Source: an uncultured Ruminococcus sp. (GTDB taxonomy: Bacteria > Bacillota > Clostridia > Oscillospirales > Acutalibacteraceae). From it: a stretch of DNA of 64,000 bases. Of this stretch, positions 1,148 to 60,325 are shown piece after piece. The notes beneath the pieces are model-generated. The model did not search any database. It worked only from the letters and a program-made list of their open reading frames with translations, and was not told where the DNA came from. The stretch covers positions 27,442 through 91,441 of the forward strand of contig CACYPV010000010.1 of the NCBI GenBank assembly GCA_902776375.1. Direction: 5' to 3'. Both the position numbers and the translations under genes were made by a program. The stretch's first letter is position 1, and each line of letters begins with the position of its first letter.

Positions 1148-1234
1148 AGTGTAAAGTGAACAGTGCAAAATCGGGTGAGGGCGAAGCCCTCCGTTAACTT
1201 TGAACTTTTCACTTTGAACTTTGAACTATTTCAC
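1148..1234. repeat. Composite intergenic repeat (type II core)
   Basis: Short units (AAAGTGAACAGTGCAAA) lie left of a GC-rich hairpin, GAGGGCGAAGCCCTC. Related units in the opposite orientation (CTTTGAACTTTTCAC) lie to the right. Read on the minus strand, the core continues CACCCGATTTTGC, like the other type II cores. The right flank runs into the amidohydrolase gene and encodes its last residues and stop. Confidence 0.7.
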
Positions 1235-2042
1235 TTTTTATTCCAAACAATCTCTGCGCGTTTTTATACATCAGGTTGTCGTAATCCTCTTTGCTTATCA
1301 GGTCTTTCAGCTCGTTGAAGTAGCCCTGACAGAACGAGCGCTGACCCGCGCGGTTATACAGCATATGATCCTTGCCGTCTATCGGGTTGTCGGTGCCGAA
1401 CAGTATCTTTTCGCTGCCGCATTTTTTGATGGCTCGGACAGTCGTTTCATAAGACACCCAAGTGGTGTCGCCGTATAGGTTGGGAAGCTTTGCGATAAGC
1501 TCCATAGCCTCATTGCAGTCGCTGTCGAGATCCATGTGCACCGCGACAAAATCGATATCCGGATGCGCCTTGGCGGCGTTGTAAAGGTACAAGGTTCTCG
1601 CCTTTTCGATGTTGCCCGTGTGCGAAACGACGGGCAGCCCAAAGCGGCGCGCAAGCTCGTAAACCGGCTCCAGCTTAGGCTCGTCGGGAGCGGTCTCGGA
1701 ACGGTACGGGTGTATCTTGATACCGTAGATATAACGGCGGTTTTTCTCGATAAGTCTGCACAACCGCTCGTTGGGAACGCAGCGGTCGATCTGCAGCCAC
1801 AGCAGCGCGCCCAGCTTGTCCGGATGCCGCTTGGCGGCGCGGATGGTCTTTTTGCACACGCGGTACTGCGTTCTGCGCAGAGGCCACGGCAGACGCTTGC
1901 CCTCGCTGTAGTATTCGGTGCTTTCGATGCTGCTGACGAGCGAAAAGTCAACGCCGTAGCGCTCCATTGAGTAAAGCACCTTGCGCACGCTTAGGTTGAG
2001 GATCAAAAGATTGCCGATGTGTGCGTGAGAGTCAATTATCAT
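1209..2042 (-). CDS. Amidohydrolase-family (TIM-barrel) metal-dependent hydrolase
   Basis: A 277-residue protein of the amidohydrolase_2/TatD-like superfamily. Metal-binding residues are visible in order: DSHAH (H6, H8), KIHP (H111), SHTGN (H141), AVHMD (H169) and FGTDNP (D218). The substrate is unknown; relatives are hydrolases or decarboxylases. The start overlaps the end of the upstream patatin-like gene by 11 bases, so the two are probably co-transcribed and translationally coupled. The C-terminal residues EIVQSSK and the stop come from repeat DNA, so the ancestral protein probably ended differently. Confidence 0.8.
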   Translation of the reverse strand: MIIDSHAHIGNLLILNLSVRKVLYSMERYGVDFSLVSSIESTEYYSEGKRLPWPLRRTQYRVCKKTIRAAKRHPDKLGALLWLQIDRCVPNERLCRLIEKNRRYIYGIKIHPYRSETAPDEPKLEPVYELARRFGLPVVSHTGNIEKARTLYLYNAAKAHPDIDFVAVHMDLDSDCNEAMELIAKLPNLYGDTTWVSYETTVRAIKKCGSEKILFGTDNPIDGKDHMLYNRAGQRSFCQGYFNELKDLISKEDYDNLMYKNAQRLFGIKSEIVQSSK

Positions 2043-2892
2043 TTGCCAAAAAGCCTCTTATCTCCTCGAGTTTTTTCATGGCAGCCTGCCTGCCGAGGTC
2101 GTATGTCTTTTGTATCTTTTCGGGGTCGTGCTCTATCCTGCCGATATCAAGCGGAGCATCGGGGCAGATAACAAGCGCCTTGCCCGCCTTTTCGCGCCCG
2201 AAAACATATTTGCGCTGCTCGTTGTACATCAGGTGGCGATTGGCGACGGCTTTTATCATCTTGGGGTATTTCTTTAAGCTTCGGCGGAACAGCCACATCT
2301 TTGACGCGGGCTTTTTAACATAGTCGCGCGGACGGGTGAGCACCACGATATTGCGCTCGTATAAGCCCTCGGCAAACCTCAACGGGATGGAATCGGTCAC
2401 TCCCCCGTCAAGGTATTTGTGCCCGTCGAGCTCTACCGGACGCGACACCAGCGGCATGGAAGCCGAGGCGCGGATCCACTCGTAGCAGTCGTCGTCGACC
2501 GAATCGACCCGCTTGTAATGCGGCAGACCTGTTTCGATATCGGAAACGACCAGGTAAAACTTCATAGGGTTCTTTTCAAACGCCTCTATATCGAACGGGT
2601 CGAGCCTTTCGGGGATATCGTGATAGCAAAACTGCGCCCCGAACAAGTCGCCCGTTTTGCCCAGCGAGCGGAACGAGCAGTACTTTGGCTCCTTGCAGTA
2701 TTTCAGGTTGTAGCGCAGCGCGCGTCCGGGCTGGTTCGATTTGTAGTTGCAGCCGAATGCTGCGCCTGCCGACACGCCCGTAAGCGCCGGAAAGGTAAAG
2801 CCGTTTTCCATGAGGACGTCGATAACGCCGGCGGAAAACAGTCCGCGCATGGCGCCGCCCTCAAGCACAAGCCCTGTGTTATTGTCAGTCAT
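2032..2892 (-). CDS. Patatin-like phospholipase family protein
   Basis: A 286-residue protein with all patatin signatures: the oxyanion loop EGGAMRG (11-17), the nucleophile elbow GVSAG with Ser41, and the catalytic Asp162 in LDGGVTDS. These enzymes use a Ser-Asp dyad to hydrolyse acyl esters of lipids. No signal peptide is seen, so it is probably cytoplasmic or peripheral to the membrane, as in the bacterial RssA/YjjU-type group. It is the first gene of a pair with the amidohydrolase. Confidence 0.88.
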   Translation of the reverse strand: MTDNNTGLVLEGGAMRGLFSAGVIDVLMENGFTFPALTGVSAGAAFGCNYKSNQPGRALRYNLKYCKEPKYCSFRSLGKTGDLFGAQFCYHDIPERLDPFDIEAFEKNPMKFYLVVSDIETGLPHYKRVDSVDDDCYEWIRASASMPLVSRPVELDGHKYLDGGVTDSIPLRFAEGLYERNIVVLTRPRDYVKKPASKMWLFRRSLKKYPKMIKAVANRHLMYNEQRKYVFGREKAGKALVICPDAPLDIGRIEHDPEKIQKTYDLGRQAAMKKLEEIRGFLANDN

Positions 2893-2908
2893 ATCATCAT
2901 CTCTTTTT

Positions 2909-3020
2909 TAGTTATTAGCGTGATCAGGTATTAGCGTGATTAGGTATTAGCGAGATCAGGTTTTAGCGTGATTAGTTTCTAGTACCTAGTACCTAATACC
3001 TAATACCTAGTACCTAATCC
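2909..3020. repeat. Tandem 16-bp repeat followed by 7-8-bp repeats
   Basis: Four copies of a 16-bp unit (TATTAGCGTGATCAGG and variants) occupy 2913-2976. After them come seven-to-eight-base units of the TACCTAG/TACCTAA type up to 3020. The last unit supplies the TAG stop of the MutS-family gene. No GC-rich core is present at this copy. Confidence 0.85.
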
Positions 3021-4711
3021 GCTCTGCTCTTTATATGATCCTTTATCTGGTCAAAGGTCACGCCGTATTTTATCGCGATGTCCTTGGCATAGCTCACGCC
3101 CTGCGGCGGCATGACTGCGACCTTGAAGCTTCTTTCGCCGTGCTGAACGCCCGTTACAAGGCTTTCCACGCGGCTGTCGCCCTTGACGCCGTTGTTCAGC
3201 TCGTCAAGGCTGCGCGCGAGCTCGTGCATATGGGTGTTGAAAATGCAGCGCACGCCCAGATAGCGCATCGCCTTTACAACGTCCTTAGCTATGAATAAGC
3301 CCTCGGCTACGCTGGTGGTCGCGAGGCTCTCGTTCAGCAGCATGAAGCTGCGCGGAGTCGCCGCCTCGAATATCTCCGAAAGGCGCTTGCTCTCCTCGCC
3401 CAGCCTGCCCAGATCGACGGTGTCGTTCTCGTCGGCGGGAAAATGCGTGAACATGTTGTCGCAGGGGCTTATCTTCGCGCTCGCCGCAGGCACATAAATG
3501 CCCCACTGAGCAAGCATCATCGCAAGCCCCACAGCCTGTGTGAAGATGGTCTTGCCGCCACGGTTAGGTCCCGTCAGGATATAAATGCGGCGCTCGTCGT
3601 CAAAGTCGATATCGTTGGTGATTATGTTGATATCATCGCCCTTTACGTTGTTGATAGCGAGCTTCAGATTATATATTTCTTTAAAAGAACAATTTCTGTC
3701 ATCCGGCGGCAAAATCTCCGCCTTGCAAACGGGCATGCCCTTTGCGATTATTTTGTCGATAAGCTCAGCCCAGCGCACGTAGAAGATGATCTCGGGCATC
3801 AGACCGATGAGCATGTAGCCGCTGATGTTTACATAGCGCTTGAGCGTTGACTTGATGTCGTCGCAGGTCTTTTTCATAATGCTTGTCACGGGCTTGGTTA
3901 TCGCGTTTGAGATAGAGTCGGTGCCGGTCGCCGTAGTCTCGATAGCGATATCGTTCGAAACCGCGCTTTTCTGATAGCCGCCGATCTTGTACTCGGTGGT
4001 GATCGGGTTGGCGGCGTGAAAATGCTTCATTCCGCTGGTGTCGGTGCCCTCGTGCAAGCCGTCCTGCCTGTTGGCGAAGTTCATAAAGCGCTTCATAAGT
4101 CCAGCGTCGACGAACGGAGCGTCGTTGAGCGAGATTACCCCCGCCGCCTTCGGGCGCAACATGTCGTCGAGGTTCACGCCGATAGTTATGCTTTTCACGC
4201 GGCGAGCCTGCTCCATCGTTTCGTCGATGTCAGCCTTGAGCTGTGGAAATCCGCTTTCACGGTCGATGTCGGTCACGATCTGGCGCAGGGTCTTCATGCC
4301 CTCGGAATGAACGTCGAGCTCCTCAAGCGTTTTCTTTATCATGGTTATGCAGCTCACGTACTCGTCGATCTCGCGCAGGCGGTTTATGAGCGACCACAGC
4401 GAGGGTCCCTCCTGATCCTTCTGAAAGCGCGCCACGTCCTTCAAATCGGCGAGCCGCGCCACAAGATCCTCCATAGCGGAGCGCAGCTTCGGGAAACGCA
4501 AAAAGTCCTCGAACACGTCGCAGCGCCACTTGATGACCTCGGGATCGTCGGTGACCTGAGTCATAAGGTTGTACATGTGCTCGCGTTCGTTGCGGTGGTC
4601 GGTCAGATTGTCAAGCAAAAAATCGATCGACAGGTCGTTTATAGACTCTGCGGTCAGTTGGTTGGTTTTATGTTCTTTTACCACAGGGAACAATAAGCTG
4701 AAATCTTCCAT
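3014..4711 (-). CDS. MutS-family ATPase lacking the mismatch-recognition domain
   Basis: A 565-residue protein whose C-terminal third is a MutS domain V ATPase: Walker A GPNRGGKT (381-388), Walker-B-like FMLLNES (456-462) and FNTHMHELA near residue 492. The first 350 residues are helical, like MutS core and clamp domains. There is no N-terminal domain I with the mismatch-probing Phe-x-Glu and no C-terminal Smr nuclease. That matches stand-alone MutS-related proteins of Clostridia, whose role is not defined. The Walker B position carries Asn instead of the usual Asp. Confidence 0.8.
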   Translation of the reverse strand: MEDFSLLFPVVKEHKTNQLTAESINDLSIDFLLDNLTDHRNEREHMYNLMTQVTDDPEVIKWRCDVFEDFLRFPKLRSAMEDLVARLADLKDVARFQKDQEGPSLWSLINRLREIDEYVSCITMIKKTLEELDVHSEGMKTLRQIVTDIDRESGFPQLKADIDETMEQARRVKSITIGVNLDDMLRPKAAGVISLNDAPFVDAGLMKRFMNFANRQDGLHEGTDTSGMKHFHAANPITTEYKIGGYQKSAVSNDIAIETTATGTDSISNAITKPVTSIMKKTCDDIKSTLKRYVNISGYMLIGLMPEIIFYVRWAELIDKIIAKGMPVCKAEILPPDDRNCSFKEIYNLKLAINNVKGDDINIITNDIDFDDERRIYILTGPNRGGKTIFTQAVGLAMMLAQWGIYVPAASAKISPCDNMFTHFPADENDTVDLGRLGEESKRLSEIFEAATPRSFMLLNESLATTSVAEGLFIAKDVVKAMRYLGVRCIFNTHMHELARSLDELNNGVKGDSRVESLVTGVQHGERSFKVAVMPPQGVSYAKDIAIKYGVTFDQIKDHIKSRAD

Positions 4712-4719
4712 AATAACCT

Positions 4720-5523
4720 CTAGCTGAAAAACTTATAGATCCTGTCCTTGTAATCGGGCGCCTCGTCAAATACACAGTGCCCGTATTTTTCATCGTACAT
4801 ATACAACTCGCAGTTGCCGCCGAGCTTCTCGGCTATCTCAACAGAGCCCTCGGCTGTCAGCACCCTGTCCGCCTTTGCGCCGATCACCAGCACGGGACAC
4901 TTTATATTATCAAGCTCGTCGTAAACGCTCAGGGTATCGCAGGACTTGCCCAAAATGATGAATCTGTTGAAATCCTCCTGCGTCACGTCCCTATGGGCTA
5001 GCCTTATGAACCGCCCGAACATTTCAGCGAACTCTTTGCTGTAAAGCACGTCGATAAAGCTGTCGCAAAACGCGTTTATGTCGCCTTTTTCGGCAAGCGC
5101 GACCCAGGTTTTCATCACTTTTTCGGCGGTGGGGTTGAGCCTTGCGCAGGTCGAAGCCAAAAGCAATTTGCCCACAAGCTCAGGGTGCCGCGCGGCGATG
5201 TACATAGCTATCATGCCGCCCTGCGACGCGCCCATAAGACAGACGTTTTTCAGCCCCAAAGCGGTCAGCGCTTCGGCGGTGTCCTCGGCGAGCTGCTCAA
5301 CGGTATAATTCTCTGAAAGAAATTTAGTTCTGTCAAAGCAGTAAACGGTGAACTCATCGCTGAACATGCGGTAAGCGGAAGCCACGCCCTCGGCGTTATT
5401 CAGGATACTTTTAACGCTCAGCCCCGAGAGCATGACGAAGATCTTCTCTCCCCTGCCGAAGGTAAAATAATCCATTTCGTTGTTCTTGAGCCTGACCGTC
5501 GCGCGCTTTACCATGATCGCCAT
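4720..5523 (-). CDS. Alpha/beta-fold hydrolase
   Basis: A 267-residue single-domain hydrolase. The nucleophile elbow is GASQGG with Ser100, the acid is probably D219 in IGAKAD, and the base H249 in KYGHCVFDE. The lid region (about 125-190) is helical. The substrate is unknown; such proteins act on esters, thioesters or peptides. It ends eight bases before the MutS-family gene and may form a two-gene unit with it. An internal ATG at residue 4 is an alternative start. Confidence 0.8.
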   Translation of the reverse strand: MAIMVKRATVRLKNNEMDYFTFGRGEKIFVMLSGLSVKSILNNAEGVASAYRMFSDEFTVYCFDRTKFLSENYTVEQLAEDTAEALTALGLKNVCLMGASQGGMIAMYIAARHPELVGKLLLASTCARLNPTAEKVMKTWVALAEKGDINAFCDSFIDVLYSKEFAEMFGRFIRLAHRDVTQEDFNRFIILGKSCDTLSVYDELDNIKCPVLVIGAKADRVLTAEGSVEIAEKLGGNCELYMYDEKYGHCVFDEAPDYKDRIYKFFS

Positions 5524-5624
5524 ACTTTCACTTACCTTTGTTTCAATATATAGGAATATTATAACAGCTTTTTTGGCTTTTGTCTATGCGAAATATGAAA
5601 ACAAATCATCACTTTTCCCAACAT

Positions 5625-5658
5625 AAAACGGCGAGGCTTATATTTCAAAGCTTCGCCG
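5625..5658 (-). terminator. Rho-independent terminator of the lipoprotein gene
   Basis: Read on the minus strand, CGGCGAAGCTTTG pairs with the CGCCG-containing arm across an AT-rich loop and is followed by TTTTATG. It lies just past the lipoprotein stop. On the plus strand the hairpin is also followed by five T, so it may work both ways. Confidence 0.65.
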
Positions 5659-5672
5659 GATTTTTACTGTAT

Positions 5673-6434
5673 TCAATACCCGTAGCGACCTATAAATGCG
5701 TCCCAGCCGTCGGATTGTACCTCGCTCCAATCGTACGTTTTGAGTTCGTTTTTCGGCTTTCTGTAATGCGCGGATTCATCCGACTGCGTGGTGCAAGCCA
5801 TGTAAACGTCATAGAGAGTTTGGTTGCTGATAGTCGTGTTGCCGTTGCCGCTGTCGTCATAGGTCGTATCCACTACCTTCTCGCTGACGATCTTTCCGTC
5901 CTGCAGTCCGGAATACACAACGACCGATTCTTTGGCGAAGCTGTCGCTGCGGAATATACCGTGATACTTTTCGTTGTCACTGTAAAAGCTCGCTCTTCCG
6001 CCGATATCGCCCGAGTGAACGACCATTCCGTCATATACGGTATAGACCGACAGTCCCATTCGCGCGCCCCAATACCCCAAAATGAGCTCGGGTATGCCGT
6101 CCATGTCAAAGTCGTGGAGAGCAAAGGGCGTGTCCGCTTTTATGGGAGAAGTCGTATCGCCCCAGATAAGCGGCTCGGCGTTCTCGGTGACGTAGCTGTA
6201 GTACATCGCAGACCAATCGGGCTGCGGCTCCGTCGGCTCCTCGGTAACCACCTCGGTGACCTCCTCGGTCGTTATCTCCGTGATTGCTTCCGTTGCGGGC
6301 TCGGTTGCGGGCTCGGTTTTAGCCTCTGTCGCCGATTCGGCTTTTGACGAAGCCAAGGACGAGCCGCCGTTTGAGCATCCGACCAACGCGACAGGAATGA
6401 CGCCAGCAAGCAATAATGCCAAAATTATTTTCAT
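5673..6434 (-). CDS. Secreted lipoprotein with Thr/Glu-rich linker
   Basis: A 253-residue protein with a lipoprotein signal peptide: positive start, hydrophobic stretch and lipobox ALVGC, lipidated Cys at about residue 20. A low-complexity linker (about 33-73) rich in TEPATE and EEVTE follows. The globular part begins at DWSAMYYSYV and contains LHDFDMDGIPELIL, an FG-GAP/VCBS-like calcium loop often seen in Clostridia lipoproteins. Function is unknown; it is predicted to sit on the outer face of the membrane. The AGGAGG-like ribosome site is well placed. Confidence 0.75.
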   Translation of the reverse strand: MKIILALLLAGVIPVALVGCSNGGSSLASSKAESATEAKTEPATEPATEAITEITTEEVTEVVTEEPTEPQPDWSAMYYSYVTENAEPLIWGDTTSPIKADTPFALHDFDMDGIPELILGYWGARMGLSVYTVYDGMVVHSGDIGGRASFYSDNEKYHGIFRSDSFAKESVVVYSGLQDGKIVSEKVVDTTYDDSGNGNTTISNQTLYDVYMACTTQSDESAHYRKPKNELKTYDWSEVQSDGWDAFIGRYGY

Positions 6435-6495
6435 TTGTATCCTCCTTATCCAAAAAAGCTTTTTCTATCTCATTTTTCACAGCTTTTGTTTTCAG

Positions 6496-6540: not shown

Positions 6541-6623
6541 CGTAGCAACGAAAATGATGTCATAGTCACAAGGCAGTTCTTGGAGTAGACCGCCTGTAAT
6601 AATGACAAATAATCTTATTAGGT

Positions 6624-11605: not shown

Positions 11606-11650
11606 TAGCTGTCACTGTTAATTGTTAATCGTTAATTGTTAATTGTAAAA
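11606..11650. repeat. Tandem TTAATTG repeat after murC
   Basis: Four to five copies of a seven-to-eight-base unit (GTTAATT, one variant GTTAATC) begin a few bases past the murC stop. This is the same class of short repeat found at other gene ends in the window, here without a GC-rich core of either type. Confidence 0.7.
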
Positions 11651-19572: not shown

Positions 19573-19750
19573 CAATTGACAATTTACAATTTACAATTGA
19601 CAATTGCGGGCGGGACACCCGCACCCGATCTGTATTAATGCGGTGCGTGCGCTTTGCGCAGAAAGCTTTATATCAAAGCACGCATTATTATAGATCCGGA
19701 GCGGAGCGACCCTAAATTGTCAATTTTCCATTGTCAACTTTCCATTATAA
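19573..19750. repeat. Composite intergenic repeat (type II core)
   Basis: Left flank: ATTGACA/ATTTACA units. Core: GCGGGCGGGACACCCGC followed by ACCCGATCTGTATTAATGCG, then a long imperfect inverted repeat (GATCTGTATTAATGCG against CGCATTATTATAGATC). Right flank: AATTGTCAATTTTCC units in the opposite orientation. The right flank runs up to the start codon of the exonuclease. Confidence 0.8.
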
Positions 19751-25385: not shown

Positions 25386-25455
25386 TAAACTTATATCTTA
25401 TTACTTAAAACTTATTACTTATAACTTATTACTTATAACTCACTAGCCGCTAGCC
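25386..25455. repeat. Tandem ACTTATA-type repeat
   Basis: Repeated TTACTTATAACTTA units run into GCCGCTA units. No GC-rich core. The last unit supplies the TAG stop of the U32 gene, which reads leftward into the repeat. It lies downstream of that gene and upstream of alaS. Confidence 0.75.
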
Positions 25456-26676
25456 GCTGACATCCCGTTTCCTCCTGATCACCGAGCCCGCCGGAACAGC
25501 CCTGTCGGCTTTCAGCGTGAGTATCTCCATCGGGTGGGGCGCGCTATCAACGCTCTCCCCCGCCTCATTTTCAAGGCTGAGGCACTTTATCAAAAACGGG
25601 AATCCGTCGGGCGGCAGCACGTCGAGCGTATCGCCGACCCAAAACTTGTTGCGCTGAGAGATGACCGAGGTCGTATCATCTACGCTCTTTTCGCAGAACG
25701 CCACGTTGTCGTAGTGGCGGATATAACCGCCGCTCTGCGTCTCCTGCCCCGGCTCCGTGCCGAAGTAAAAGCCCGTGCTGTAAGCGCGGTGGCTTATCTT
25801 TTCGAGCTCCTCCTTCATCCACGGCTCAACCGTGAACGGGTCGCCCTGCTCAAAATAAGCGTCGAGCGCCTTGCGGTACGCGTTGGTGGTGACGGCGGTG
25901 TAGTAGGCGGTTTTCGCCCTGCCCTCGATTTTAAAGCTTGAAACGCCCGCCTTGACAAGCTCGGGGATATGCTCGATCATGCACATATCGCGCGAATTAT
26001 ACAGGAAAGTGCCTTGGCTGTCCTCCTCGACCGGGAAGAACTGCCCGTCGCGGGTCTCCTCAAAAAGGTGGTACTTCCAGCGGCAGGGCTGCGCGCAGTC
26101 GCCGTGGTTGGCATCGCGCCCTGTGAGATAGCTTGAAATAAGGCACCTGCCCGAGAACGAAACGCACATAGCGCCGTGCACGAAGCACTCGATCTCGAGC
26201 TCCTTAGGCGCCTTCGCGCGTATCTCGGCGATCTCGTCAAGCGGTATCTCGCGCGCCATGACGACCCTTGAAGCGCCCAAATCATACAGCGCCTTGGCGG
26301 CGGCGTAATTGGTGACGCCCGCCTGAGTAGACACGTGCCGCGCAACCTTGGGCGCGTAGCGCTTAGCCATTTCAAAAACGCCCATGTCGGCTATTATCAG
26401 CGCGTCGACGCCGCAGTCCTGCGCCATCATAAGGAAGTCCGGCAGCGCGGCGAGCTCGCCGTTGCGCGGAAGGATGTTGCAGGTGAGATGGATTTTTTTG
26501 TTCATGGAATGTGCCAGCTCACACGCCGCTTTGAGCTCATTATCGTCAAAGTTTTTCGGCGCGGAGCGCATTCCAAAGCTTTTTCCGGCAAGAAACACCG
26601 CGTCCGCCCCGAAGCTCAGGGCAGAACGCAGGCATTCCCAATCTCCCGCAGGAGATAATATTTCAGGTTTTTTCAT
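25450..26676 (-). CDS. U32-family protein (TrhP/YegQ-like)
   Basis: About 408 residues, matching the peptidase U32 family. Members are now known to act in tRNA or rRNA hydroxylation (TrhP, RlhA) and ubiquinone hydroxylation rather than proteolysis. The start KKPEILSPAGDWE, HGAMCVSFSGRC and GDCAQPCRW with conserved cysteines (possible [4Fe-4S] ligands), and FKIEGRAK are diagnostic. ATG 26676 gives the canonical start; a GTG at 26691 overlapping mltG is the alternative. It follows mltG with overlap, so they share a transcript. Confidence 0.82.
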   Translation of the reverse strand: MKKPEILSPAGDWECLRSALSFGADAVFLAGKSFGMRSAPKNFDDNELKAACELAHSMNKKIHLTCNILPRNGELAALPDFLMMAQDCGVDALIIADMGVFEMAKRYAPKVARHVSTQAGVTNYAAAKALYDLGASRVVMAREIPLDEIAEIRAKAPKELEIECFVHGAMCVSFSGRCLISSYLTGRDANHGDCAQPCRWKYHLFEETRDGQFFPVEEDSQGTFLYNSRDMCMIEHIPELVKAGVSSFKIEGRAKTAYYTAVTTNAYRKALDAYFEQGDPFTVEPWMKEELEKISHRAYSTGFYFGTEPGQETQSGGYIRHYDNVAFCEKSVDDTTSVISQRNKFWVGDTLDVLPPDGFPFLIKCLSLENEAGESVDSAPHPMEILTLKADRAVPAGSVIRRKRDVSG

Positions 26677-41827: not shown

Positions 41828-41845
41828 ATCCTGCCCCCTTTCCGG

Positions 41846-42012
41846 ATTAATGAATATTGAATACTGAATAATGAATAAAGAATAATGAAGGGTGGGCTCC
41901 GCCCACGCCCGATTTATATTGATGCTAAATCAATTACGCATTACGCATTACGAATTACGAATTCCCTAATACCTAATACCTAATACCTAGTACCTAGTGC
42001 CTAGCATCTAAA
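41846..42012. repeat. Composite intergenic repeat (type II core)
   Basis: TGAATA-type units lie left. The core (41891-41927) is GGTGGGCTCCGCCCAC followed by GCCCGATTTATATTGATGC. Right come ACGCATT/ACGAATT units, then TACCTAA/TACCTAG units. It lies upstream of cdaA and downstream of the cysteine-desulfurase-like gene. Confidence 0.8.
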
Positions 42013-42029
42013 AATTATTTTACCACATT

Positions 42030-44325: not shown

Positions 44326-44364
44326 AAACTCACTTAACTCTCAACTCTTAGCTCTTAATTCTTA
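44326..44364. repeat. Short tandem repeat at the dapA stop
   Basis: Minus-strand units TTAAGAGC/TAAGAGT/TGAGAGT begin within the last codons of dapA and supply its TAA. No core. Confidence 0.65.
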
Positions 44365-45276: not shown

Positions 45277-45500
45277 TATAATTAACAATTTACAATTTAG
45301 GTGTTAGGTACTAGGTATTAGGGGCTGTGTAGGGGCGGACCCGTGTGTCCGCCCGAAACGTCGCATTATTCTGCGGGCGCACACTTGGGTGCGCCCCTAC
45401 GTAATACAACCAATGTTCCGCTAATTTAATTCCGAATTCCGAATTCCGAATTCCGCATTATCTAGCATCTAGCCTCTAGCATCTAGCCTCCAGCCTCTAA
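45277..45500. repeat. Composite intergenic repeat (type I core)
   Basis: AATTTAC and TTAGGTA units lead to the core (45329-45400), GTAGGGGCGGAC to GTGCGCCCCTAC, with the CGTCGCATTATTCTG centre. A tail ACGTAATACAAC, CAATGTTCCGCTAA follows, then AATTCCG and CTAGCCT/CTAGCAT units up to the asd stop. Confidence 0.85.
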
Positions 45501-50220: not shown

Positions 50221-50595
50221 ATGTCCGATAAAAAGAAGTTTATCAGGTCTGTCGCAATAGGTCTGCTTGTCGGGATGGCGGCAAGCGTTCTGCTGATTTG
50301 TCTGCTGTCGGCGATACTCAGCAAAAGCGGGCTGCTGCCGAATGAAGTCATCGACTGGATAACGGCGGCGACGCTAGCCGCAGGCGCGCTCGCGGGCGGC
50401 TTCACCGCGGCAAAGCTAAACAGGGGTGCGGGGCTGATAGCCGGAGCCGCGGCGGGAGCGGCGATGCTTTTTACGCTCGTGCTGGCGGCAGCGCTAAGGG
50501 GCGAGGCGGATTTCACCCTGCTCTTCCCCATCAAGCTAGCAGCGACCCTGGTGGGAGCCTCCGCCGGCGGAATCCTGGCAGTCAGGGGGAGTTAG
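50221..50595 (+). CDS. TIGR04086-like four-helix membrane protein
   Basis: 124 residues, four predicted membrane helices with Gly/Ala-rich spans. It resembles the TIGR04086 family, which sits after yajC and before SCIFF-peptide genes in Clostridia. Function unknown. Its TAG stop lies in the repeat that follows. Confidence 0.7.
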   Translation: MSDKKKFIRSVAIGLLVGMAASVLLICLLSAILSKSGLLPNEVIDWITAATLAAGALAGGFTAAKLNRGAGLIAGAAAGAAMLFTLVLAAALRGEADFTLLFPIKLAATLVGASAGGILAVRGS

Positions 50596-51362
50596 AGGCT
50601 AGAAGCTAGAGGCTAGAAGCTAGAGGCTAGAGGCTAGATGAACTAGCAGAAACGTTGGTTGAAATATGTGACAATGCTGAAAAAGAAAGCCTCCCCCATT
50701 ACTTGTCATGGGGGAGGTGTCAGCGGAGCTGACGGAGGGGGCAGAGTTCTCCGATAGCGCCACGTTTTGCTAAGACAGCAAGCATTAGTCGGCAATAAGC
50801 TTTCTAACTAACCTTTGGATAGAGGAAGCGTCTACCCCCTCCGTCACGGCGACACAAATGTTTAACATTTAGGTAGTCCTTCCTCTATTATTCAACCATT
50901 GTATTAAGCTGAAACTCTGCACTCAGTCGCCGTGCCACCTCCCCCGTAACAAGTGACGGTGGAGGCTTCGCTTAAAGGCTTCTAGCTTCTAGCCTCTAGC
51001 CTCTAAACCGCAAACCTCCTATATACTTAAAAAAATTACATACTTTTATATATTTTTTTCAGTTTTGTAAAAGTCCTATAAAAAACATCTACAAACCTCT
51101 ACAAGCTTAATTATCCGCATATGTAAGCCATTTTTTTATGTAGAGGTTTTTGTTTTATACATCTACTAACCTCTACAAAAACATTTTTGAAGACGCACAC
51201 ATGGGTGCGCCCCTACGTAGTGTAATCAACGTATCTGCTAAGCACGCACCAATACAAAATGGGTGTGGGCGGAGCCCACCCTTCACTGTTAATTGTAGAT
51301 TGTTAATTGTAGATTTGAAACAACTTTGCACTTTTCACTTTGAACTTTGAACTAAAAAAGCG
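50592..51362. repeat. Repeat-rich gene-free region (types I and II, plus a MITE)
   Basis: Contains AGAGGCT/AGAAGCT units (50592-50637) and their inverse (50974-51008), flanking a MITE. It also has a solo type I right arm and tail (51192-51240), an inverted type II core (51241-51281), and AATTGTA and CTTTGAA units to 51357. The stretch 51009-51185 is AT-rich with no recognised gene. Confidence 0.75.
50689..50966. mobile_element. MITE-like element with long terminal inverted repeats
   Basis: GCCTCCCCCATTACTTGTCA at the left matches the inverse of GTAACAAGTGACGGTGGAGG at the right, and the match extends about 55 bases inward. Internal hairpins include AAATGTTTAACATTT and AGAGGAAG/CTTCCTCT. No coding sequence, so it would be moved in trans. 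Similar GGGGGAGG elements are common in gut Clostridia. Confidence 0.75.
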
Positions 51363-53170: not shown

Positions 53171-53187
53171 TATATTCTCTCCTTTCC

Positions 53188-54996: not shown

Positions 54997-55009
54997 TCAG
55001 TGACCTCCT

Positions 55010-55384
55010 TTATTTATCCATCGCCCCGATGGTGAACTCGGTGACAACGTTCTTGTTTACAAGATGATCGTTGACTATTCTTGCAACCTTTTCGGGGGTC
55101 ATTTTAACATAAGTTACTTTTTCCTGTCCGGGGATCTCTACCTCAACGACGGGCTCATACTGGCAAATGCCGATGCAGCCGGTCTGGGTAACAACGATAT
55201 CCTCCTGCAGTCCGCGCTTTGCGATCTCCTCGGTGAATGCGTTGAGTACGGGTCTTGCGCCCGCGGCGATACCGCAGGTAGCCATGCCGACCAAAACGCG
55301 CGCGGCGTTAGGATTCTCTTTTCTTAAAGCGACATTAGCCTTAGCTCTGTCTCTTATAGCCTGTAATTCGGCTAACGATTTCAT
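55010..55384 (-). CDS. [2Fe-2S] ferredoxin domain protein
   Basis: 124 residues of thioredoxin-like ferredoxin with MATCGIAAGA and TGCIGICQYEP cysteines. It resembles small accessory subunits found in clostridial hydrogenase operons. ATG 55384 overlaps the TGA of the upstream ATPase gene and has GGAGG. Confidence 0.88.
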   Translation of the reverse strand: MKSLAELQAIRDRAKANVALRKENPNAARVLVGMATCGIAAGARPVLNAFTEEIAKRGLQEDIVVTQTGCIGICQYEPVVEVEIPGQEKVTYVKMTPEKVARIVNDHLVNKNVVTEFTIGAMDK

Positions 55385-55935
55385 AATTCTGCACCTCCGC
55401 AAATATTTTCAGTTTGTTCTTTCAAAAATTCTTCTATCCATTCAATGACGTCCGGGGTGTCAAGGCTAACGCCCTGAAGCACCTCGCGCAGCTCCCTTGT
55501 GTCAAGCGTGAACGAACCCTTGTCGTTCGACCGCGTGAACACGAAGTCGATATCGGGATTGCAGCGTATTAAAATGGATACCGTGGAATTGATGTCCCCC
55601 AGCGGGGTCATGTCCACGTGGCTCTTTACGTAGCTCGCCTGTGTTTTGGTGCCGCGGCCGACTTGGGACTCGATGTTGAAGCTCCCGCCCGTCTGCTCGG
55701 CAGACATCTTGAAAAGCGGGACGCCCAGCCCGACCTTGCGGGTGGTGCGTGTGGTAAAAAACGGGTCGATGACCTGCTTTACCTGCTCCTCCGTCATGCC
55801 GCAGCCGTTGTCGCTGATGGTGATGGTGAGCAAGTCGTCCTTATCGCTTTCCTCCACCGTGATGTACACAAGCGACGCCTCCGCCCTGACTGAATTCTGG
55901 GCGACGTCCATTACGTTAAGCGATAACTCACGCAT
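55381..55935 (-). CDS. GHKL-type ATPase inside the hydrogenase operon
   Basis: 184 residues. HATPase_c motifs DVAQNSVRA (N box), ISDNGCGM (G1) and KVGLGVPL, followed by a partial extra domain. No kinase phosphoacceptor. It overlaps hydC by eight bases. Role unknown; likely regulatory. Confidence 0.82.
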   Translation of the reverse strand: MRELSLNVMDVAQNSVRAEASLVYITVEESDKDDLLTITISDNGCGMTEEQVKQVIDPFFTTRTTRKVGLGVPLFKMSAEQTGGSFNIESQVGRGTKTQASYVKSHVDMTPLGDINSTVSILIRCNPDIDFVFTRSNDKGSFTLDTRELREVLQGVSLDTPDVIEWIEEFLKEQTENICGGAEL

Positions 55936-56428
55936 CCTTGTACTTTTCCAGAATGCCCGGAACGTCGGCAACGGTCAGTCTGCCGTAAACCTCGTCGTTG
56001 ACGGTGAGAACGGGCGCGAGACCGCAGGCGCCGATGCAGCGGCAAGCCGTCAGCGAGAATTTACCGTCGGGGGTACATTCCTCAGCCTCGATGCCGAGCA
56101 GCTCGGAGAGCTTGTTGAGAATGTCGCCGGAGCCCTTTACGTAGCAAGCTGTGCCAAGGCAAACCGAGATGTTGTATTTGCCCTTTGGTGACAGAGCGAA
56201 CTGAGAATAGAAGGTCGACACGCCGTAAACCTCCTCGAGCGGAACGCCCAAGCCCTCTGCTACCATTGTCTGAACCTCGATAGGCAGGTATCCGTAGATC
56301 TCCTGCGCCTCCTGAAGCACGGGCATTACCGCGCCGGGGTCGTCGATGTTCTTCGCGATGACCTCTTTCAGCTTTGCCTCCTGCTCAGGTGTGCCCGAAA
56401 ACGGGATACTGCTGATCTTTTTTTGCAT
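55928..56428 (-). CDS. hydC: NuoE-like [2Fe-2S] subunit of the hydrogenase
   Basis: 166 residues. Helical N-terminus and a thioredoxin-like [2Fe-2S] domain with CLGTACYVKG and CRCIGACGLAP. First gene of the operon. Confidence 0.93.
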   Translation of the reverse strand: MQKKISSIPFSGTPEQEAKLKEVIAKNIDDPGAVMPVLQEAQEIYGYLPIEVQTMVAEGLGVPLEEVYGVSTFYSQFALSPKGKYNISVCLGTACYVKGSGDILNKLSELLGIEAEECTPDGKFSLTACRCIGACGLAPVLTVNDEVYGRLTVADVPGILEKYKDA

Positions 56429-56508
56429 AGTTTTTCCTCCCTGATTAGAATTGTCATTACCGATAAAAAAACATTACATTCAAGTAAAGTCATATTTACT
56501 CATTAAGC

Positions 56509-56537
56509 ATTATAACATAGAAAAAGCAAAAAGTCCA
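56509..56537 (-). promoter_or_regulatory. Promoter of the hydrogenase operon
   Basis: On the minus strand TGGACT, a 17-base spacer and TATAAT, 80 bases before hydC. No clear Rex site overlaps it. Confidence 0.7.
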
Positions 56538-56738
56538 CTATAGTTTTTGGAATTTTTATCAAAAAATGTAAAAAAACAAAAGTTTATTATATTGACTGCA
56601 TGTATTTTTCATATTAAACGGCTTGCAAAAGACAAAAACACACAAAAATCAGCCGAAGCCGCCCCCGCGCGACACGCCGTTGCGTCAATATGGGGCAACC
56701 TTCGACCGATTCAAATCATATGTTTTTGCCAAACAAAT
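56538..56738. other. AT-rich spacer between the two hydrogenase operons
   Basis: Holds upstream promoter DNA for hydC; no gene, repeat or strong terminator is evident for the PHP gene that ends at 56739. Confidence 0.5.
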
Positions 56739-57449
56739 TTATTTGTCCAAACTCTCCAACACGCTTTGGGCGGTCAGGGCGTCGAGCTCGATAAAATTTT
56801 CCGCCTCGCGCATGTTTTCAAGATAATGCGCGTCGGAGCTTGTGACGATATTCATGCCGTTGAGGATAGGGTGCATTTTTTTCAGTGCGCCGAGCTTTGA
56901 CTTGTCGGCAAGTTCAGCCGTTTTGAAGCCGCAGCTCTCGTCTATCTCGCCCAGCACCGAAAGGATAGACAGGCTGTCGCGGTCGATGTGCGCGGGATAG
57001 CAAATGCCGCCGAACTCCTTTACCTTGTTATAAGCGTTCATTATGCTTATGTCCGTGGCGGGCAAAAGCAGGTGCTCTATCTCCCCCGTTTCCTCGTCGT
57101 TCTTGTTCATAATGACCTGCCTGCCGTATATCTCGGCGCGGTTCCTTACTTTGATACGGCGCTTGTCCACATAATCGTTCCACGCGAGCGCCTTTTCCAG
57201 ATCGGGAAACAGGCAGACGGCGTGGATATCCTCGCTGGTGGTGAGCTCCATGCCGGGGATGACGAGCAGCCCTATTTCCCTGCCGACAGCCATCGCCGCC
57301 TCGCAGTTGAGCGAGGTGTTGTGGTCGGTCAGGGCGATAACATCCAGCCCCAGCAGCTTTGCCATGTTCACAAGGTTGTTGGGGGTCATGTCCATATCGC
57401 CGCAGGGCGAAAGGCACGAGTGGATATGCAGGTCGTAAAAATACTTCAT
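56739..57449 (-). CDS. PHP-domain phosphoesterase
   Basis: 236 residues with HIHSCLSPCGDMD, LTDHNTSLN and SDAHYLENM metal motifs. Probable metal-dependent phosphatase or nuclease of the YciV/PolX-PHP type. It starts three bases after the DRTGG gene and is the last gene of the regulatory operon. Confidence 0.88.
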   Translation of the reverse strand: MKYFYDLHIHSCLSPCGDMDMTPNNLVNMAKLLGLDVIALTDHNTSLNCEAAMAVGREIGLLVIPGMELTTSEDIHAVCLFPDLEKALAWNDYVDKRRIKVRNRAEIYGRQVIMNKNDEETGEIEHLLLPATDISIMNAYNKVKEFGGICYPAHIDRDSLSILSVLGEIDESCGFKTAELADKSKLGALKKMHPILNGMNIVTSSDAHYLENMREAENFIELDALTAQSVLESLDK

Positions 57450-57452
57450 AGC

Positions 57453-57782
57453 TTACGCGAGCAGCTTGCTTATCCTGACCGCAAGGCTGTAGCTGTTTTC
57501 CTCGGTCAGCAGTATGGTGACGTCCATCATCTCAGCCTTTTTCTTGGCGTCGGCGTCAAGAGCGGCGTTCTCAACAAGGATGATGCAGCTTACGTCGGCA
57601 AGCGTCGCGACGGCTATAGAGTTGATGTTGCCCATAACGGTGAGCCAAGCGGAATCGGCAGGCGCTCTGCCCATGACCCAGCTCAGCAGATCGCCGATGT
57701 AGCAGTCGGTCACCTCGCGGTCGACGTCGCCCTCGACGAGGGTTTTTAAATTCAGTTCGTCAATTAGGTTTTGTACTGTCAT
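57453..57782 (-). CDS. DRTGG-domain protein
   Basis: 109 residues resembling DRTGG regulatory domains (as in CBS/DRTGG proteins); paralogue of 59800-60147. Cytoplasmic, likely a ligand-sensing partner. Composite repeat lies upstream. Confidence 0.75.
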   Translation of the reverse strand: MTVQNLIDELNLKTLVEGDVDREVTDCYIGDLLSWVMGRAPADSAWLTVMGNINSIAVATLADVSCIILVENAALDADAKKKAEMMDVTILLTEENSYSLAVRISKLLA

Positions 57783-57789
57783 AGTTGTT

Positions 57790-58033
57790 CCTCGGTACTA
57801 GGTATTAGGTACTAGGTATTAGGGGCTAGTGGCTAGATGCTAGATGCTAGATTAGGTATTAGGTATTAGGTATCAGGTATTAGAGTTGGTGTAGGGGCGG
57901 ACCCGTGTGTCCGCCCGAAAACGTCGCATTATTCTGCGGGCGCACACACGGGTGCGCCCCTACGTAATACAATCAACGTTTCTGCTGATTCATCCAGCCT
58001 CTAGCTTCTAGCCTCTAGCTTCTAGCTTCTAAA
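57790..58033. repeat. Composite intergenic repeat (type I core)
   Basis: TTAGGTA/CTAGATG units, a near-perfect type I core (57891-57963), the tail ACGTAATACAATCAACG then TTTCTGCTGA, and CTAGCTT/CTAGCCT units up to the group-B-like hydrogenase stop, whose TAG is part of a unit. Confidence 0.85.
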
Positions 58034-59303
58034 TGGTTCCTTTAAGCTGGTCGTATACGTTTTGTATTTTGGCGCGGAGCTTGAAGATGCAGTCGGTCTC
58101 CTTTGCCTTGCCGCGGACGATGTCCTCCGCCAGAGCGCGGCAGGTGGGCGCGCCGCAGGAGCCGCAGTCGAGGTGCGGCAGCCCTTTGTAGATGTCCTCC
58201 ATCTGCGACATCATCTCCATAGCCTTTGAGATATCCTTGTCCAGGCGGAAGATGTCGGCGTCGTAGGTGAGCTCGTTTTCCCAGAGCATTTGCGTGAGCT
58301 GGCCTTCCTCGAGGTGATTCAGCGAGACGGGCAGGAACTTGCGGAGCTTTTGTATGCGCGCCTGAGCGACATAGGGGTTCTCGACGTTCAGCACGCCGCC
58401 CACGCAGCCGCCTGAGCAGGCGTTCAGCTCGATGAAATCCACGCCTCTTATATGCTCGTCCTCGAGCTCCTCGAGCACGCGGATGACGTTTTCTATGCCG
58501 TCGGCGGCAAGGTACTTATCGCCCAGCATCGCGGCGGATTCGCCGCCGGAGGTCGCCCAGCCAATGCCCATGAGTCCGGACTGTCCCAGCGGCTCGACCT
58601 CAGTGAGGTGATCCATTATCTGGGTGAGCTCGGGGTAGATCTTAGACACGGCAATAGCGCCGTCGCACTCGGAGTGCGCGGTGTAGTTGGGCGAATGTAT
58701 TTCCGTCACCTTTGCGGGGCAGGGCGTGATGAAGAACACGCCTACCTTGCTTTTTGGCAGCCCCGTTTTTTCCATAGCCTCTTGCTTTGCCACGCGCGCG
58801 GCGACCTCGATGGGCGCCATGAGCGGCATGACGTTGTCGCAAAGCTCGGGGAAACGTATCCTTATCAGCCTAACCACGGCGGGACAGGCTGAGCTGATGA
58901 TCGGTTTATTCAGCTTGTTTTCTTTTATGAGCCTGCGCGTCGCTTCCGATACCAGCTCGGCGGCGCGGCTCACCTCGAACACATCGTCAAAGCCCAGCCT
59001 TTTAAGGCCGGTGAGGACAACGTCGATGCTGTCGAGGTTATTGAATTGTCCGAACAGCGCGGGCGCGGGGATGGCTACGGTGTATTCAAAGTCCCGTATC
59101 TCTTCAAGCTTTGAGCTGTTCGCCTTTTTGGCGTGGTGCGGACAAATGCGTATACATTCGCCGCAGTCGATACAGCGCTCGGAGAGGATCTTTGCCTTGC
59201 CGTCGTGCACGCGGATAGCCTCGGTGGGACAGCGTTTCAGGCAGTTGGTACAGCCGCAGCAGCGGTCGGCGTCGAGCTGAACGGAGTGAAAATATTTTTC
59301 CAT
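58029..59303 (-). CDS. Group-B-like [FeFe]-hydrogenase with C-terminal Fe-S domain
   Basis: 424 residues. Two ferredoxin motifs (15-25, 44-54), H-cluster-like motifs SSACPAV (C140), TPCPAKV (C195) and NACSGGCVGG (C296, C300), and a C-terminal CGSCGAPTC..C Fe4S domain. L1 and L3 differ from HydA (no CCP, no GGG), as in group B or sensory enzymes. Probably a slow or sensory hydrogenase. Confidence 0.85.
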   Translation of the reverse strand: MEKYFHSVQLDADRCCGCTNCLKRCPTEAIRVHDGKAKILSERCIDCGECIRICPHHAKKANSSKLEEIRDFEYTVAIPAPALFGQFNNLDSIDVVLTGLKRLGFDDVFEVSRAAELVSEATRRLIKENKLNKPIISSACPAVVRLIRIRFPELCDNVMPLMAPIEVAARVAKQEAMEKTGLPKSKVGVFFITPCPAKVTEIHSPNYTAHSECDGAIAVSKIYPELTQIMDHLTEVEPLGQSGLMGIGWATSGGESAAMLGDKYLAADGIENVIRVLEELEDEHIRGVDFIELNACSGGCVGGVLNVENPYVAQARIQKLRKFLPVSLNHLEEGQLTQMLWENELTYDADIFRLDKDISKAMEMMSQMEDIYKGLPHLDCGSCGAPTCRALAEDIVRGKAKETDCIFKLRAKIQNVYDQLKGTI

Positions 59304-59329
59304 TGCATATTACTCCCGGATGAGTGGAA

Positions 59330-59380
59330 AGTTATCTAATAACTTATTACATATAACTTATTACTTATAACTTACTAGCC
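59330..59380. repeat. Tandem ACTTATA-type repeat
   Basis: TTACTTATAACTTA units as at 25386, overlapping the stop of the anti-sigma-like ATPase (TAG). Confidence 0.7.
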
Positions 59381-59803
59381 ACTTACTTTGATAGTCAAAT
59401 ACAGATTTGTTCCCACGCCGATGGTGGTTTCTATGCGCATTTCGTCGCTGTATTTTTTGATGTTGGGCAGACCCATGCCCGCGCCGAAGCCAAGGCTGCG
59501 CACGTTGTCGGGCGCGGTTGAAAAGCCCTCCTGCATCGCCTTTTCAACGTCGGGTATACCGGGGCCGTGGTCGGACAGAAGTATCTCGATCCTGTCGGGG
59601 TAGATATCAACGTCGCAAAAGCCGCCGTCGGCGTGGATCACCATGTTGATCTCAGCCTCGTACATGGCTATGGCTGTGCGCCTTATCGCGTCGGGGTTGA
59701 AGCCCAGCGATTTAAGACGCTTTTTGACCGCGCCGCTCGCCTCGCCCGCACGCGTGAAATCCTCGCCCGACACCTCGTAGTGAAGATGTATAGCGTTGCT
59801 CAT
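59375..59803 (-). CDS. GHKL ATPase, anti-sigma/RsbT-like
   Basis: 142 residues. Motifs MYEAEINMVIHA (N box), LSDHGPGIPD (G1) and LGFGAGMGLPNIKK (G2), like SpoIIAB/RsbW/RsbT. ATG 59803, with GGGAGG upstream, overlaps the DRTGG gene end. Confidence 0.87.
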   Translation of the reverse strand: MSNAIHLHYEVSGEDFTRAGEASGAVKKRLKSLGFNPDAIRRTAIAMYEAEINMVIHADGGFCDVDIYPDRIEILLSDHGPGIPDVEKAMQEGFSTAPDNVRSLGFGAGMGLPNIKKYSDEMRIETTIGVGTNLYLTIKVSG

Positions 59804-60147
59804 ACCTTTGTTCCTCCCGACAGGCCGCCGGCGTAAAGTCTTCCGCACGCGGTGAACATTCTGTAGCGGGTCTTGATAAGGGTTATGCCCCTTTGCTCCG
59901 CAAGGCGGATGATGGAATCGTCGGGCACCTTGCCGCGCACGAATACTATGCACGCCATGTCCATCATTTCGGCGGTGCGCACCACCTGAGGATTGACAAG
60001 GCCTGTGAGCAGCACGGACTGATCCTTGACGAACGCCAGAACGTCGCTCATCATGTCTGAGCCGCAGGCGGTCTTGATCTCCTGCTCGAGGTCGCCCTCG
60101 CAGATTATCTCGCCCTCAAGAATGTCGATGATATCTTTAACAATCAT
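59800..60147 (-). CDS. DRTGG-domain protein
   Basis: 115 residues. Resembles DRTGG regulatory domains (EMMDMACIVFVRGKVPDD). First gene of the second operon, with GGAGAG upstream. Confidence 0.78.
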   Translation of the reverse strand: MIVKDIIDILEGEIICEGDLEQEIKTACGSDMMSDVLAFVKDQSVLLTGLVNPQVVRTAEMMDMACIVFVRGKVPDDSIIRLAEQRGITLIKTRYRMFTACGRLYAGGLSGGTKV

Positions 60148-60167
60148 TTCGGAACTCTCCTTTTATA

Positions 60168-60325
60168 TAGTTATTTAGGTATTAGGTATTAGGTATCAGG
60201 GATTAGGATTTAGTGGTTAGGGTACGCCCTAAAACGTCGCGGTATTCCACGGGCGCACACATGGGTGCGCCCCTACGTACTACCAGAAACGTTTCTGCTA
60301 ATACCTCTAGCCTCTAGCCTCTAAA
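60168..60325. repeat. Composite repeat (degenerate type I core) in a 5' leader
   Basis: TTAGGTA units, degenerate core (60220-60275), tail ACGTACTACCAG, AAACGTTTCTGCTAA, then CTAGCCT units. Lies between the promoter at 60340 and the DRTGG start, so in the transcript leader. Confidence 0.75.

What the first reader, a model, noticed from the sequence alone, without database searches (positions are those of the whole stretch)
1148..60325. Family of composite intergenic repeats with two core types
At least twelve intergenic sites hold short (7-8 base) tandem units. Many of these sites enclose one of two GC-rich palindromic cores, with flanking units inverted on the other side. The unit sequence differs from site to site (CTAGCCT, TAGGTAT, TTAATTG, TTTGAAC, ACTTATA) but the architecture is constant. 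This suggests a defined element or repair-generated structure rather than random microsatellites.
Basis: seen in the sequence. Interest (0 to 1): 0.75.

Follow-up and report, generated by a model that had tools for sequence, protein, structure and literature searches.

The report
Palindromes with inverted seven-base repeat arms
Gaps between genes in this bacterium hold small DNA hairpin elements whose two arms are rows of seven-base repeats facing each other; in related species the arms change length in whole repeats and in one case the middle has flipped over, which offers a handle on why seven-base repeats are common in some bacteria.

Summary
In 464 kb of this genome, 85 of 99 intergenic tandem arrays have a 7-base period; without the window and one stretch placed over known repeats, 56 of 68. 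Neighbouring arrays face each other (39 inverted, 5 direct, 16 tied). Many enclose GC-rich palindromes, of more than two kinds. Core 1 is an inverted pair of GTAG-tagged REPs (a REPIN). No RAYT transposase was found here, but a congener carries one beside REPs of the same type. Core 2 is another hairpin element; 24 of 25 of its ends carry a heptamer array in fixed phase. REPINs nest inside armed elements in two other species. In the asd-dapA gap 27 of 29 congeners lack everything, arms included. Between two close congeners, 14 scored orthologous sites give 3 unchanged in length, 4 differing by exactly 14 bases and 7 rearranged, one a clean in-place inversion of the core. Arms at one site share their word more than chance but not their unit order. 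I read these as hairpin insertions remodelled by replication template switching; why the step is seven stays open.

The parts
1149..1237 (.). Composite: array AGTGTAAAGTGAACAGTGCAAA, core-2 hairpin GGGTGAGGGCGAAGCCCTCC, array (AACTTTG)n
2908..3018 (.). Array of 16-base units containing TTAGGTA, then (CTAGTAC/CTAATAC)n; no core seen
11616..11646 (.). Array (TGTTAAT)n, no core seen
19573..19606 (.). Left arm (CAATTGA/CAATTTA)n of a complete core-2 element
19608..19714 (.). Core 2: GGGCGGGACACCCGCACCCGATCTGTATTAATGC ... GATCCGGAGCGGAGCGACCCTA
19715..19746 (.). Right arm (AATTGTC)n, inverted copy of the left-arm word
25388..25458 (.). Arrays (ACTTATA/ACTTATT)n and (CTAGCCG)n, no core seen
41848..41889 (.). 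Array (GAATAAT)n next to a core-2 half
41890..41925 (.). Core-2 half: GGGTGGGCTCCGCCCACGCCCGATTTATATTGATGC
41932..42004 (.). Arrays (AATTACG)n then (CTAATAC/CTAGTAC)n
44333..44364 (.). Array (CTTAACT)n, no core seen
45297..45322 (.). Left arm (TTAGGTA)n, last TAG 7 bases before GTAG
45329..45400 (.). Core 1: GTAG-tagged REP pair in inverted orientation, in the asd-dapA gap
   Evidence: gap 244 bp here, 15-47 bp in 27 of 29 congeners
45428..45499 (.). Right arrays (AATTCCG)n then (CTAGCAT/CTAGCCT)n
50593..50638 (.). Left arm (CTAGAGG/CTAGAAG)n
50981..51005 (.). Right arm (CTAGCTT/CTAGCCT)n, same word inverted, 342 bp away
51191..51216 (-). Single core-1 REP
51261..51282 (.). Core-2 half: GGGTGTGGGCGGAGCCCACCCT
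51287..51353 (.). Arrays (TGTTAAT/TGTAGAT)n and (ACTTTGC/ACTTTGA)n
57794..57883 (.). Left arrays (GGTACTA/GGTATTA/CTAGATG)n
57891..57963 (.). Core 1: GTAG-tagged REP pair
   Evidence: element folds arm to arm, z -7.4
57996..58031 (.). Right arm (AGCCTCT/AGCTTCT)n
59339..59374 (.). Array (ATAACTT/ATTACTT)n, no core seen
60164..60207 (.). Left arm (TTAGGTA)n
60220..60276 (.). Core 1 with a decayed left REP and an intact right REP
60304..60323 (.). Right arm (CCTCTAG)n

Best explanation
These are composite hairpin insertions. One layer is a GTAG-tagged REP pair (core 1, a REPIN) of the kind thought to be spread by RAYT transposases. A second layer is a class of hairpin-core elements (core 2 and its relatives in congeners) whose ends are inverted arrays of 7-base units; REPINs and other palindromes nest inside or beside them. 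Shown: period 7, inverted arms, fixed phase to the core, one empty site in 27 of 29 congeners, shared words between arms, 14-base length steps, and one in-place core inversion. Inferred: insertion as single-stranded hairpin DNA by a RAYT-type HUH enzyme that this genome has lost or never had; later remodelling of arms and core by template switching and slippage when the replication fork meets the hairpin. Not explained: why the step is seven, and how both arms come to share a word without sharing unit order.
For: Period: 85 of 99 intergenic arrays at period 7/14/21, or 56 of 68 without the window and one placed stretch. Orientation: 39 inverted / 5 direct / 16 tied here; in two congeners 19/2/0 and 8/0/1. 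Arm words match within a site more than after shuffling partners: this genome 2.38 vs 3.02 differences, p=0.0001; G012 1.10 vs 2.40, no shuffle of 20,000; G017 1.44 vs 2.59, p=0.0004. Phase: the array's last TAG lies exactly 7 bases before GTAG in 14 of the 16 core-1 copies with an array, of 19 examined; 24 of 25 core-2 ends found by their hairpins are followed at +3 by in-phase xAxTxTx words (that word form was read off the same ends). Empty site: asd-dapA gap 244 bp here, 15-47 bp in 27 of the 29 congeners whose locus was returned, 104 bp with an array but no core in one, 137 bp in one. RAYT link: a congener's RAYT, above the family cut-off, has two GTAGGGGCGCAC REP pairs beside its 3' end. 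Nesting: REPIN inside armed elements in G068 and in one of three armed elements of Agathobaculum butyriciproducens. Turnover: 14 scored orthologous G012/G017 sites. Inversion: 99.2% over 130 nt reversed against 83.3% over 36 nt direct, flanks in the same orientation. Two elements tested against shuffles fold arm to arm, z -7.4 and -7.9; of six window composites folded as RNA, five pair arm with arm at least in part.
Against: No RAYT or Y1 transposase found in this genome (98.9% complete). No target duplication seen; breakpoints at asd-dapA could not be fixed because the congeners are too diverged. Unit order does not match between arms (unit-shuffled arms score at least as well in 400, 377 and 395 of 400 shuffles), so in-register copying of one arm from the other is not supported. 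In this genome neighbouring units are less alike than shuffled (967 vs 903, sd 21), against one-unit slippage. Only one clean inversion was found, between two fragmented draft assemblies. In RAYT-bearing G068, 12 of 19 distinct REP places seen have no heptamer array within 350 bases, so arms are not part of the REPIN itself. One window composite, 41848-42004, does not fold arm to arm. In Okeania and Amazonocrinis heptamer arrays are common but not biased to inverted (4 vs 5 and 2 vs 2). The arm-word agreement could also reflect separate element lineages, each with its own word.
Confidence: 0.55

Rival explanations
1. The armed elements are non-autonomous transposons in their own right: the heptamer arms are the terminal inverted repeats recognised by a dedicated, still unidentified transposase, and arms plus core move as one unit.
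For: Arms are at 24 of 25 core-2 ends in fixed phase; the same core (91% identical) with different words sits at two neighbouring sites in G012; the whole composite is absent from the asd-dapA gap in 27 of 29 congeners.
Against: Words differ between copies of the same core, which is odd for a protein recognition site; no target duplication seen; no transposase was found with core 2, though none was searched for systematically; at one orthologous site an arm is replaced while the core stays.
Confidence: 0.2
2. Ordinary slippage microsatellites and unrelated palindromes that simply pile up in intergenic DNA, where neither does harm.
For: Both are intergenic; across phyla, arrays of periods 8, 10, 11, 13, 16 and 17 are enriched near GTAG REPs about as much as heptamers (17 near vs 62 far, against 20 vs 86 for period 7/14/21; tallied).
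Against: Period almost only 7; inverted orientation; exact spacing to GTAG; same word in both arms; genome-wide vocabulary with fixed variable positions.
Confidence: 0.12
3. Selected RNA or DNA hairpins: transcript ends, insulators or stabilisers kept for function, with the arms as an easily adjusted stem.
For: Strong folds (z -7.4 and -7.9); at one orthologous site a stem differs with pairing kept (GTGGGC/GCCCAC against GCGGAC/GTCCGC, by reading); fewer in divergent gaps (5 of 43) than in convergent (12 of 41), not significant (p=0.10 and 0.21 against the rest).
Against: Absent from the asd-dapA gap in 27 of 29 congeners; turnover is fast; no Rfam family reached its gathering score.
Confidence: 0.08

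Closest known systems
GTAG-tagged REPs / REPINs and their RAYT transposases (PMC3733652; PMC6006769)
   Same: Core 1 has the GTAG tag, a GC-rich stem, inverted pairs, more copies than chance and intergenic position; a congener has a RAYT next to such REPs.
   Different: Flanked by inverted heptamer arrays at a fixed distance; no RAYT found in the host; the part of PMC3733652 that I read lists GTAG repeats for Proteobacteria, Cyanobacteria, Chloroflexi and the PVC group, not for Clostridia.
Heptameric simple repeats of Xanthomonas and Nostoc (PMC4692102)
   Same: Seven-base units, intergenic, variable copy number; in Xanthomonas 70 and 75 cases of two nearby arrays in convergent orientation.
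   Different: One G-rich word per group; in the section and passages I read no palindromic core, nesting or core inversion is described, and the authors generally found no link to mobile elements.
TAACTGA repeats of marine Beggiatoaceae (PMC4679880)
   Same: Intergenic seven-base direct repeats in many sets.
   Different: One word, direct orientation, one inverted case only, read there as a possible regulatory signal (abstract opening and passages seen).
Short tandemly repeated repetitive (STRR) sequences of heterocystous cyanobacteria (recalled; the term occurs in papers listed)
   Same: Seven-base units between genes (recalled).
   Different: Described as direct arrays (recalled); of three cyanobacteria sampled here two show no inverted bias and Nostoc 4 against 2.
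REP pairs set in long palindromes in Anabaena variabilis (PMC3733652, section on association with other repeats)
   Same: A REP dimer nested inside a longer palindrome.
   Different: The outer palindrome there is a consensus sequence, not tandem heptamers.

Membership tests
GTAG REP / REPIN (core 1) | GTAG at the foot of a GC-rich hairpin | tested here: met
   Read in core-1 copies
GTAG REP / REPIN (core 1) | Two REPs in inverted orientation as a unit | tested here: met
   Repeated plus/minus pairs with starts about 63-66 bases apart; single REPs also occur
GTAG REP / REPIN (core 1) | Many copies, more than chance | tested here: met
   85 GTAGGGGCG against 32 for the reversed pattern
GTAG REP / REPIN (core 1) | Cognate RAYT gene in the same genome | tested here: not met
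   No match for PF01797 or NF047646 at E<=0.001 in a 98.9% complete draft. PMC3733652 notes that REPtrons may be lost, so this lowers the claim of present activity, not the sequence type
GTAG REP / REPIN (core 1) | RAYT flanked by the same REP type in a relative | tested here: met
   G068 RAYT above cut-off with two GTAGGGGCGCAC pairs next to it
GTAG REP / REPIN (core 1) | Mobilised by the RAYT | not testable with these tools
   Needs biochemistry or a mobility assay
Bacterial heptameric simple repeats | Seven-base tandem units, mainly intergenic | tested here: met
   85 of 99 intergenic arrays against 8 of 65 coding arrays of period 7 or 14
Bacterial heptameric simple repeats | Length changes in whole units | tested here: met
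   4 of 14 scored orthologous sites differ by exactly 14 bases
MITE (armed elements) | Terminal inverted repeats | tested here: met
   Inverted arms sharing a word, though the word varies between copies
MITE (armed elements) | Target site duplication | tested here: inconclusive
   None visible at asd-dapA; breakpoints not fixed
MITE (armed elements) | Related full-length transposon supplying the transposase | not tested
   No search was made for a larger armed element

The most novel reading that the evidence does not exclude
The armed elements are a distinct class of self-remodelling, invertible DNA: an enzyme or replication step that works in units of seven (or fourteen) bases builds and rebuilds both arms of a hairpin, and the arms let the core flip in place. 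That would be the source of the heptamer excess seen in several bacterial groups.
Probability: 0.15. Interest if true: 0.87.

Novelty: new variant of a known kind. Interest (0 to 1): 0.64.

Why it matters
Heptamer arrays were noted as over-abundant in bacteria, with a suggestion that the step reflects the DNA length held by the polymerase active site (passage in PMC4692102). Tying them to hairpin elements with fast arm turnover and a core inversion gives a place to test that. It also documents GTAG REPs with a RAYT in Clostridia-like genomes and shows a second layer around them. A named strain with the same architecture (Agathobaculum butyriciproducens DSM 100391) makes experiments possible.

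Tried and rejected
Rfam: no match in the window at gathering scores. RAYT as resident mobiliser: no hit in the host. The PF01797 loci of relatives: 8 of the 10 translated look like IS200-type TnpA (type recalled, by reading), and 1 of the 11 loci printed has a period-7/14 array; the script stopped at L061, so L062 was not seen at all. Cross-phylum link of heptamers with GTAG REPs: 20 arrays in 71.5 kb near against 86 in 799 kb far, but arrays of other non-triplet periods rise as much, so I claim no specific link. Cross-phylum orientation around 119 REP loci: 14 inverted, 10 direct, 2 tied of 26 pairs; with words within one mismatch 8 against 2. Stretches of ten other genomes, chosen by position: heptamers dominate intergenic arrays in Nostoc calcicola (22 of 38), Amazonocrinis (17 of 26), Okeania (38 of 57), Agathobaculum (7 of 9), Petroclostridium (4 of 6), R. 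flavefaciens MA2007 (4 of 4), not in a Dehalococcoidia (5 of 26), Oligosphaera (0 of 11) or Dysgonomonas (1 of 2); Desulfotruncus gave only 8 kb and no array. In-register copying between arms and one-unit slippage: tested, not supported. Gene-orientation preference: not significant. A first core-2 arm test had only 4 pairs and was inconclusive (p=0.17). A pooled test on 16 congener stretches gave 4 inverted, 4 direct, 1 tied of 9 pairs. One search used a pattern with a wrong spacer length, a mistake of mine; its zeros mean nothing, and one search replaced it (core 1 in 21 of 100 genus genomes). Orthologous-site scoring: searches returned 17 distinct sites; I dropped three by eye (a weak array at L495:18234, one in coding sequence at L494:16334, one without a heptamer at L553:19355). 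Of the 14 kept, L138:16488 has one flank at only 75.6% identity. The class given to each site was judged by eye.

Literature: searches, each a capped list. None of the titles or abstract openings shown described heptamer arms around REP-like cores; only openly licensed papers are held, so this is weak evidence of novelty. Seen: PMC3733652 (abstract, outline, two of four parts of Results, RAYT section), PMC4692102 (passages and one section), PMC4679880 and PMC6006769 (passages); all others as listings only.
Full report
What is there. The window is part of a 2.6-Mb draft genome in 76 contigs, 98.9% complete. No call names the organism; its genes (an [FeFe] hydrogenase of group A6, and a weak, below-cut-off match to anti-sigma F) suggest an anaerobic, Clostridia-like bacterium (inference). 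Intergenic gaps hold tandem arrays of seven-base units. In 464 kb, the window and 20 stretches, 99 intergenic arrays score 50 or more, and 85 have period 7, 14 or 21; of 65 coding arrays 45 are multiples of three. The window was picked for this finding and one stretch covers hits I knew; without both the count is 56 of 68.

Vocabulary. Arrays draw on a small set of words shared by many sites: CTAGC[C/T/A]T (111 units, 21 arrays), CTAATAC/CTAGTAC (113 units, 22 arrays), AATTGAC, GAATAGT, [A/C]ATT[A/C]CG, CTTAT[T/A]A and others. In the commonest words variation sits at one or a few fixed positions and recurs at independent sites. Random local slippage from site-specific seeds would not give this.

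Orientation and phase. In 864 kb of this genome neighbouring arrays 15-350 bases apart are inverted in 39 cases, direct in 5, undecided in 16; random pairs split evenly. In the window and the first 19 stretches alone the count is 14, 1 and 6. The arms are locked to the cores: of 19 core-1 copies examined, 16 have an array and in 14 its last TAG lies exactly 7 bases before GTAG; 24 of 25 core-2 ends are followed three bases later by in-phase words of the form xAxTxTx, a form I had read off the same ends.

Core 1. The core reads GTAG-GGGCGGAC-CCGTGT-GTCCGCCC, a spacer of about 20, then an inverted GTAG-GGGCGCAC hairpin: an inverted pair of GTAG-tagged REPs. The nine-base start occurs 85 times in the genome, its reversed control 32 times. 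REPs of this kind are thought to be moved by RAYT transposases (PMC3733652, PMC6006769). This genome has no match for either transposase family tried. In the genus, 32 of 60 genomes have some match to the RAYT family and one, G068, exceeds the curated cut-off; beside the 3' end of that gene lie two GTAGGGGCGCAC pairs. Core 1 itself is found in 21 of 100 genus genomes.

Core 2 and relatives. Core 2 has hairpins next to the arms (such as GGGCGGGACACCCGC or CGGAGCGAAGCGACCC) and inner tails such as CGATTTGTATT; where both ends were seen the arms mostly carry related words. In the congener G012 the same plan appears with other words (GAGTTAG/GAGTGAG, GGTTAAC). In G068 the arms (AGTGTGG) enclose a different hairpin, and in several copies a REPIN sits in the centre. 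One of three armed elements in Agathobaculum butyriciproducens shows arms, inner sequence and a REPIN in the middle. So REPINs nest in armed elements. They also occur without arms: in G068, 12 of 19 distinct REP places seen have no array within 350 bases (30 of 36 hits had loci).

Empty sites. Between asd and dapA the gap is 244 bases here. Of the 29 congeners whose locus was returned (60 genomes searched, own included), 27 have 15-47 bases, one has 104 with an array but no core, and one has 137 with no array that I could see. At other window sites few congeners could be compared: the composite is lacking in 4 of 4 at 41829-42014, 1 of 2 at 57783-58045, 1 of 2 at 59298-59400 and 1 of 1 at 60148-60580; G012 holds a composite of its own at the two mixed sites.

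Turnover. G012 and G017 are 96.7% identical over 3.3 kb at one locus and 88.7-97.6% over the aligned blocks. At 14 scored orthologous sites, 3 are unchanged in length, 4 differ by exactly 14 bases, and 7 are rearranged. Examples: at one site the core is nearly identical and the right arm similar, but the left arm differs in length and word; at another the arms are nearly identical but one hairpin is different, with its stem still paired; at a third the core is reversed in place, 99.2% identical over 130 bases when flipped, with flanks unchanged. A fourth site looks reversed and strongly diverged (79.1% over 86 bases flipped). The assemblies are fragmented drafts, so the inversion needs long reads.

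Arms in concert, but not in register. Arm words at one site agree more than arms of different sites in all three genomes tested; separate element lineages, each with its own word, could also give this. The order of variant units in one arm is not mirrored in the other, and neighbouring units are not more alike than shuffled ones; in this genome they are less alike. All four pure length differences are 14, not 7, which would fit an alternating two-word unit in some arrays.

Reading. Two elements tested against shuffles fold arm to arm (z -7.4 here, -7.9 in G012); five of six window composites do so at least in part, 41848-42004 does not. I propose that such elements enter as hairpin DNA, the REPIN part by RAYT-type action, and that replication past the hairpin then changes arm length and can flip the core by template switching. 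The first part rests on the congener's RAYT and on general knowledge of REPs; the second on turnover and one clean inversion. Neither explains why the step is seven.

Range. Heptamers dominate intergenic arrays in several other genomes sampled by position, among them three cyanobacteria and Agathobaculum, but not in all. A clear inverted bias was seen only in this genus, plus 3 of 3 pairs in Agathobaculum; Okeania and Amazonocrinis showed none and Nostoc 4 against 2. I therefore limit the claim of inverted arms to this genus and some other Clostridia.

Noticed in passing
window 50593-51005: Arms CTAGAGG / CTAGCCT enclose about 340 bases that include GAAAGCCTCCCCC...GGGGGAGG, another palindromic repeat; similar text is seen in L447.
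   Followed up: no
L004, L006, L010, L022: A third palindromic repeat, around TGTCATYCTGAGCG and GAAGGATCCCC, is chained to core-1 REPs; it resembles the CGTC/TGTC REP class of PMC3733652 by reading only.
   Followed up: no
window 2908-2975: Array of 16-base units (TTAGGTATTAGCGTGA) beside a heptamer array, a longer step built from the same word.
   Followed up: no
L402 (G004), G064:C8:19996-20024, G035:C39:863-888: GTAG REP sequences lie within or overlap RAYT-family matches in congeners.
   Followed up: partly
L039, L378, L392: Recurrent small armed elements AAATTAC ... ATGACAA with only 27-36 bases between arms, a further core type.
   Followed up: no
G114 (Okeania), G112 (Nostoc calcicola), G116 (R. 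flavefaciens MA2007): GTAGGGGCG occurs 860, 440 and 147 times against reversed controls of 27, 65 and 2.
   Followed up: partly
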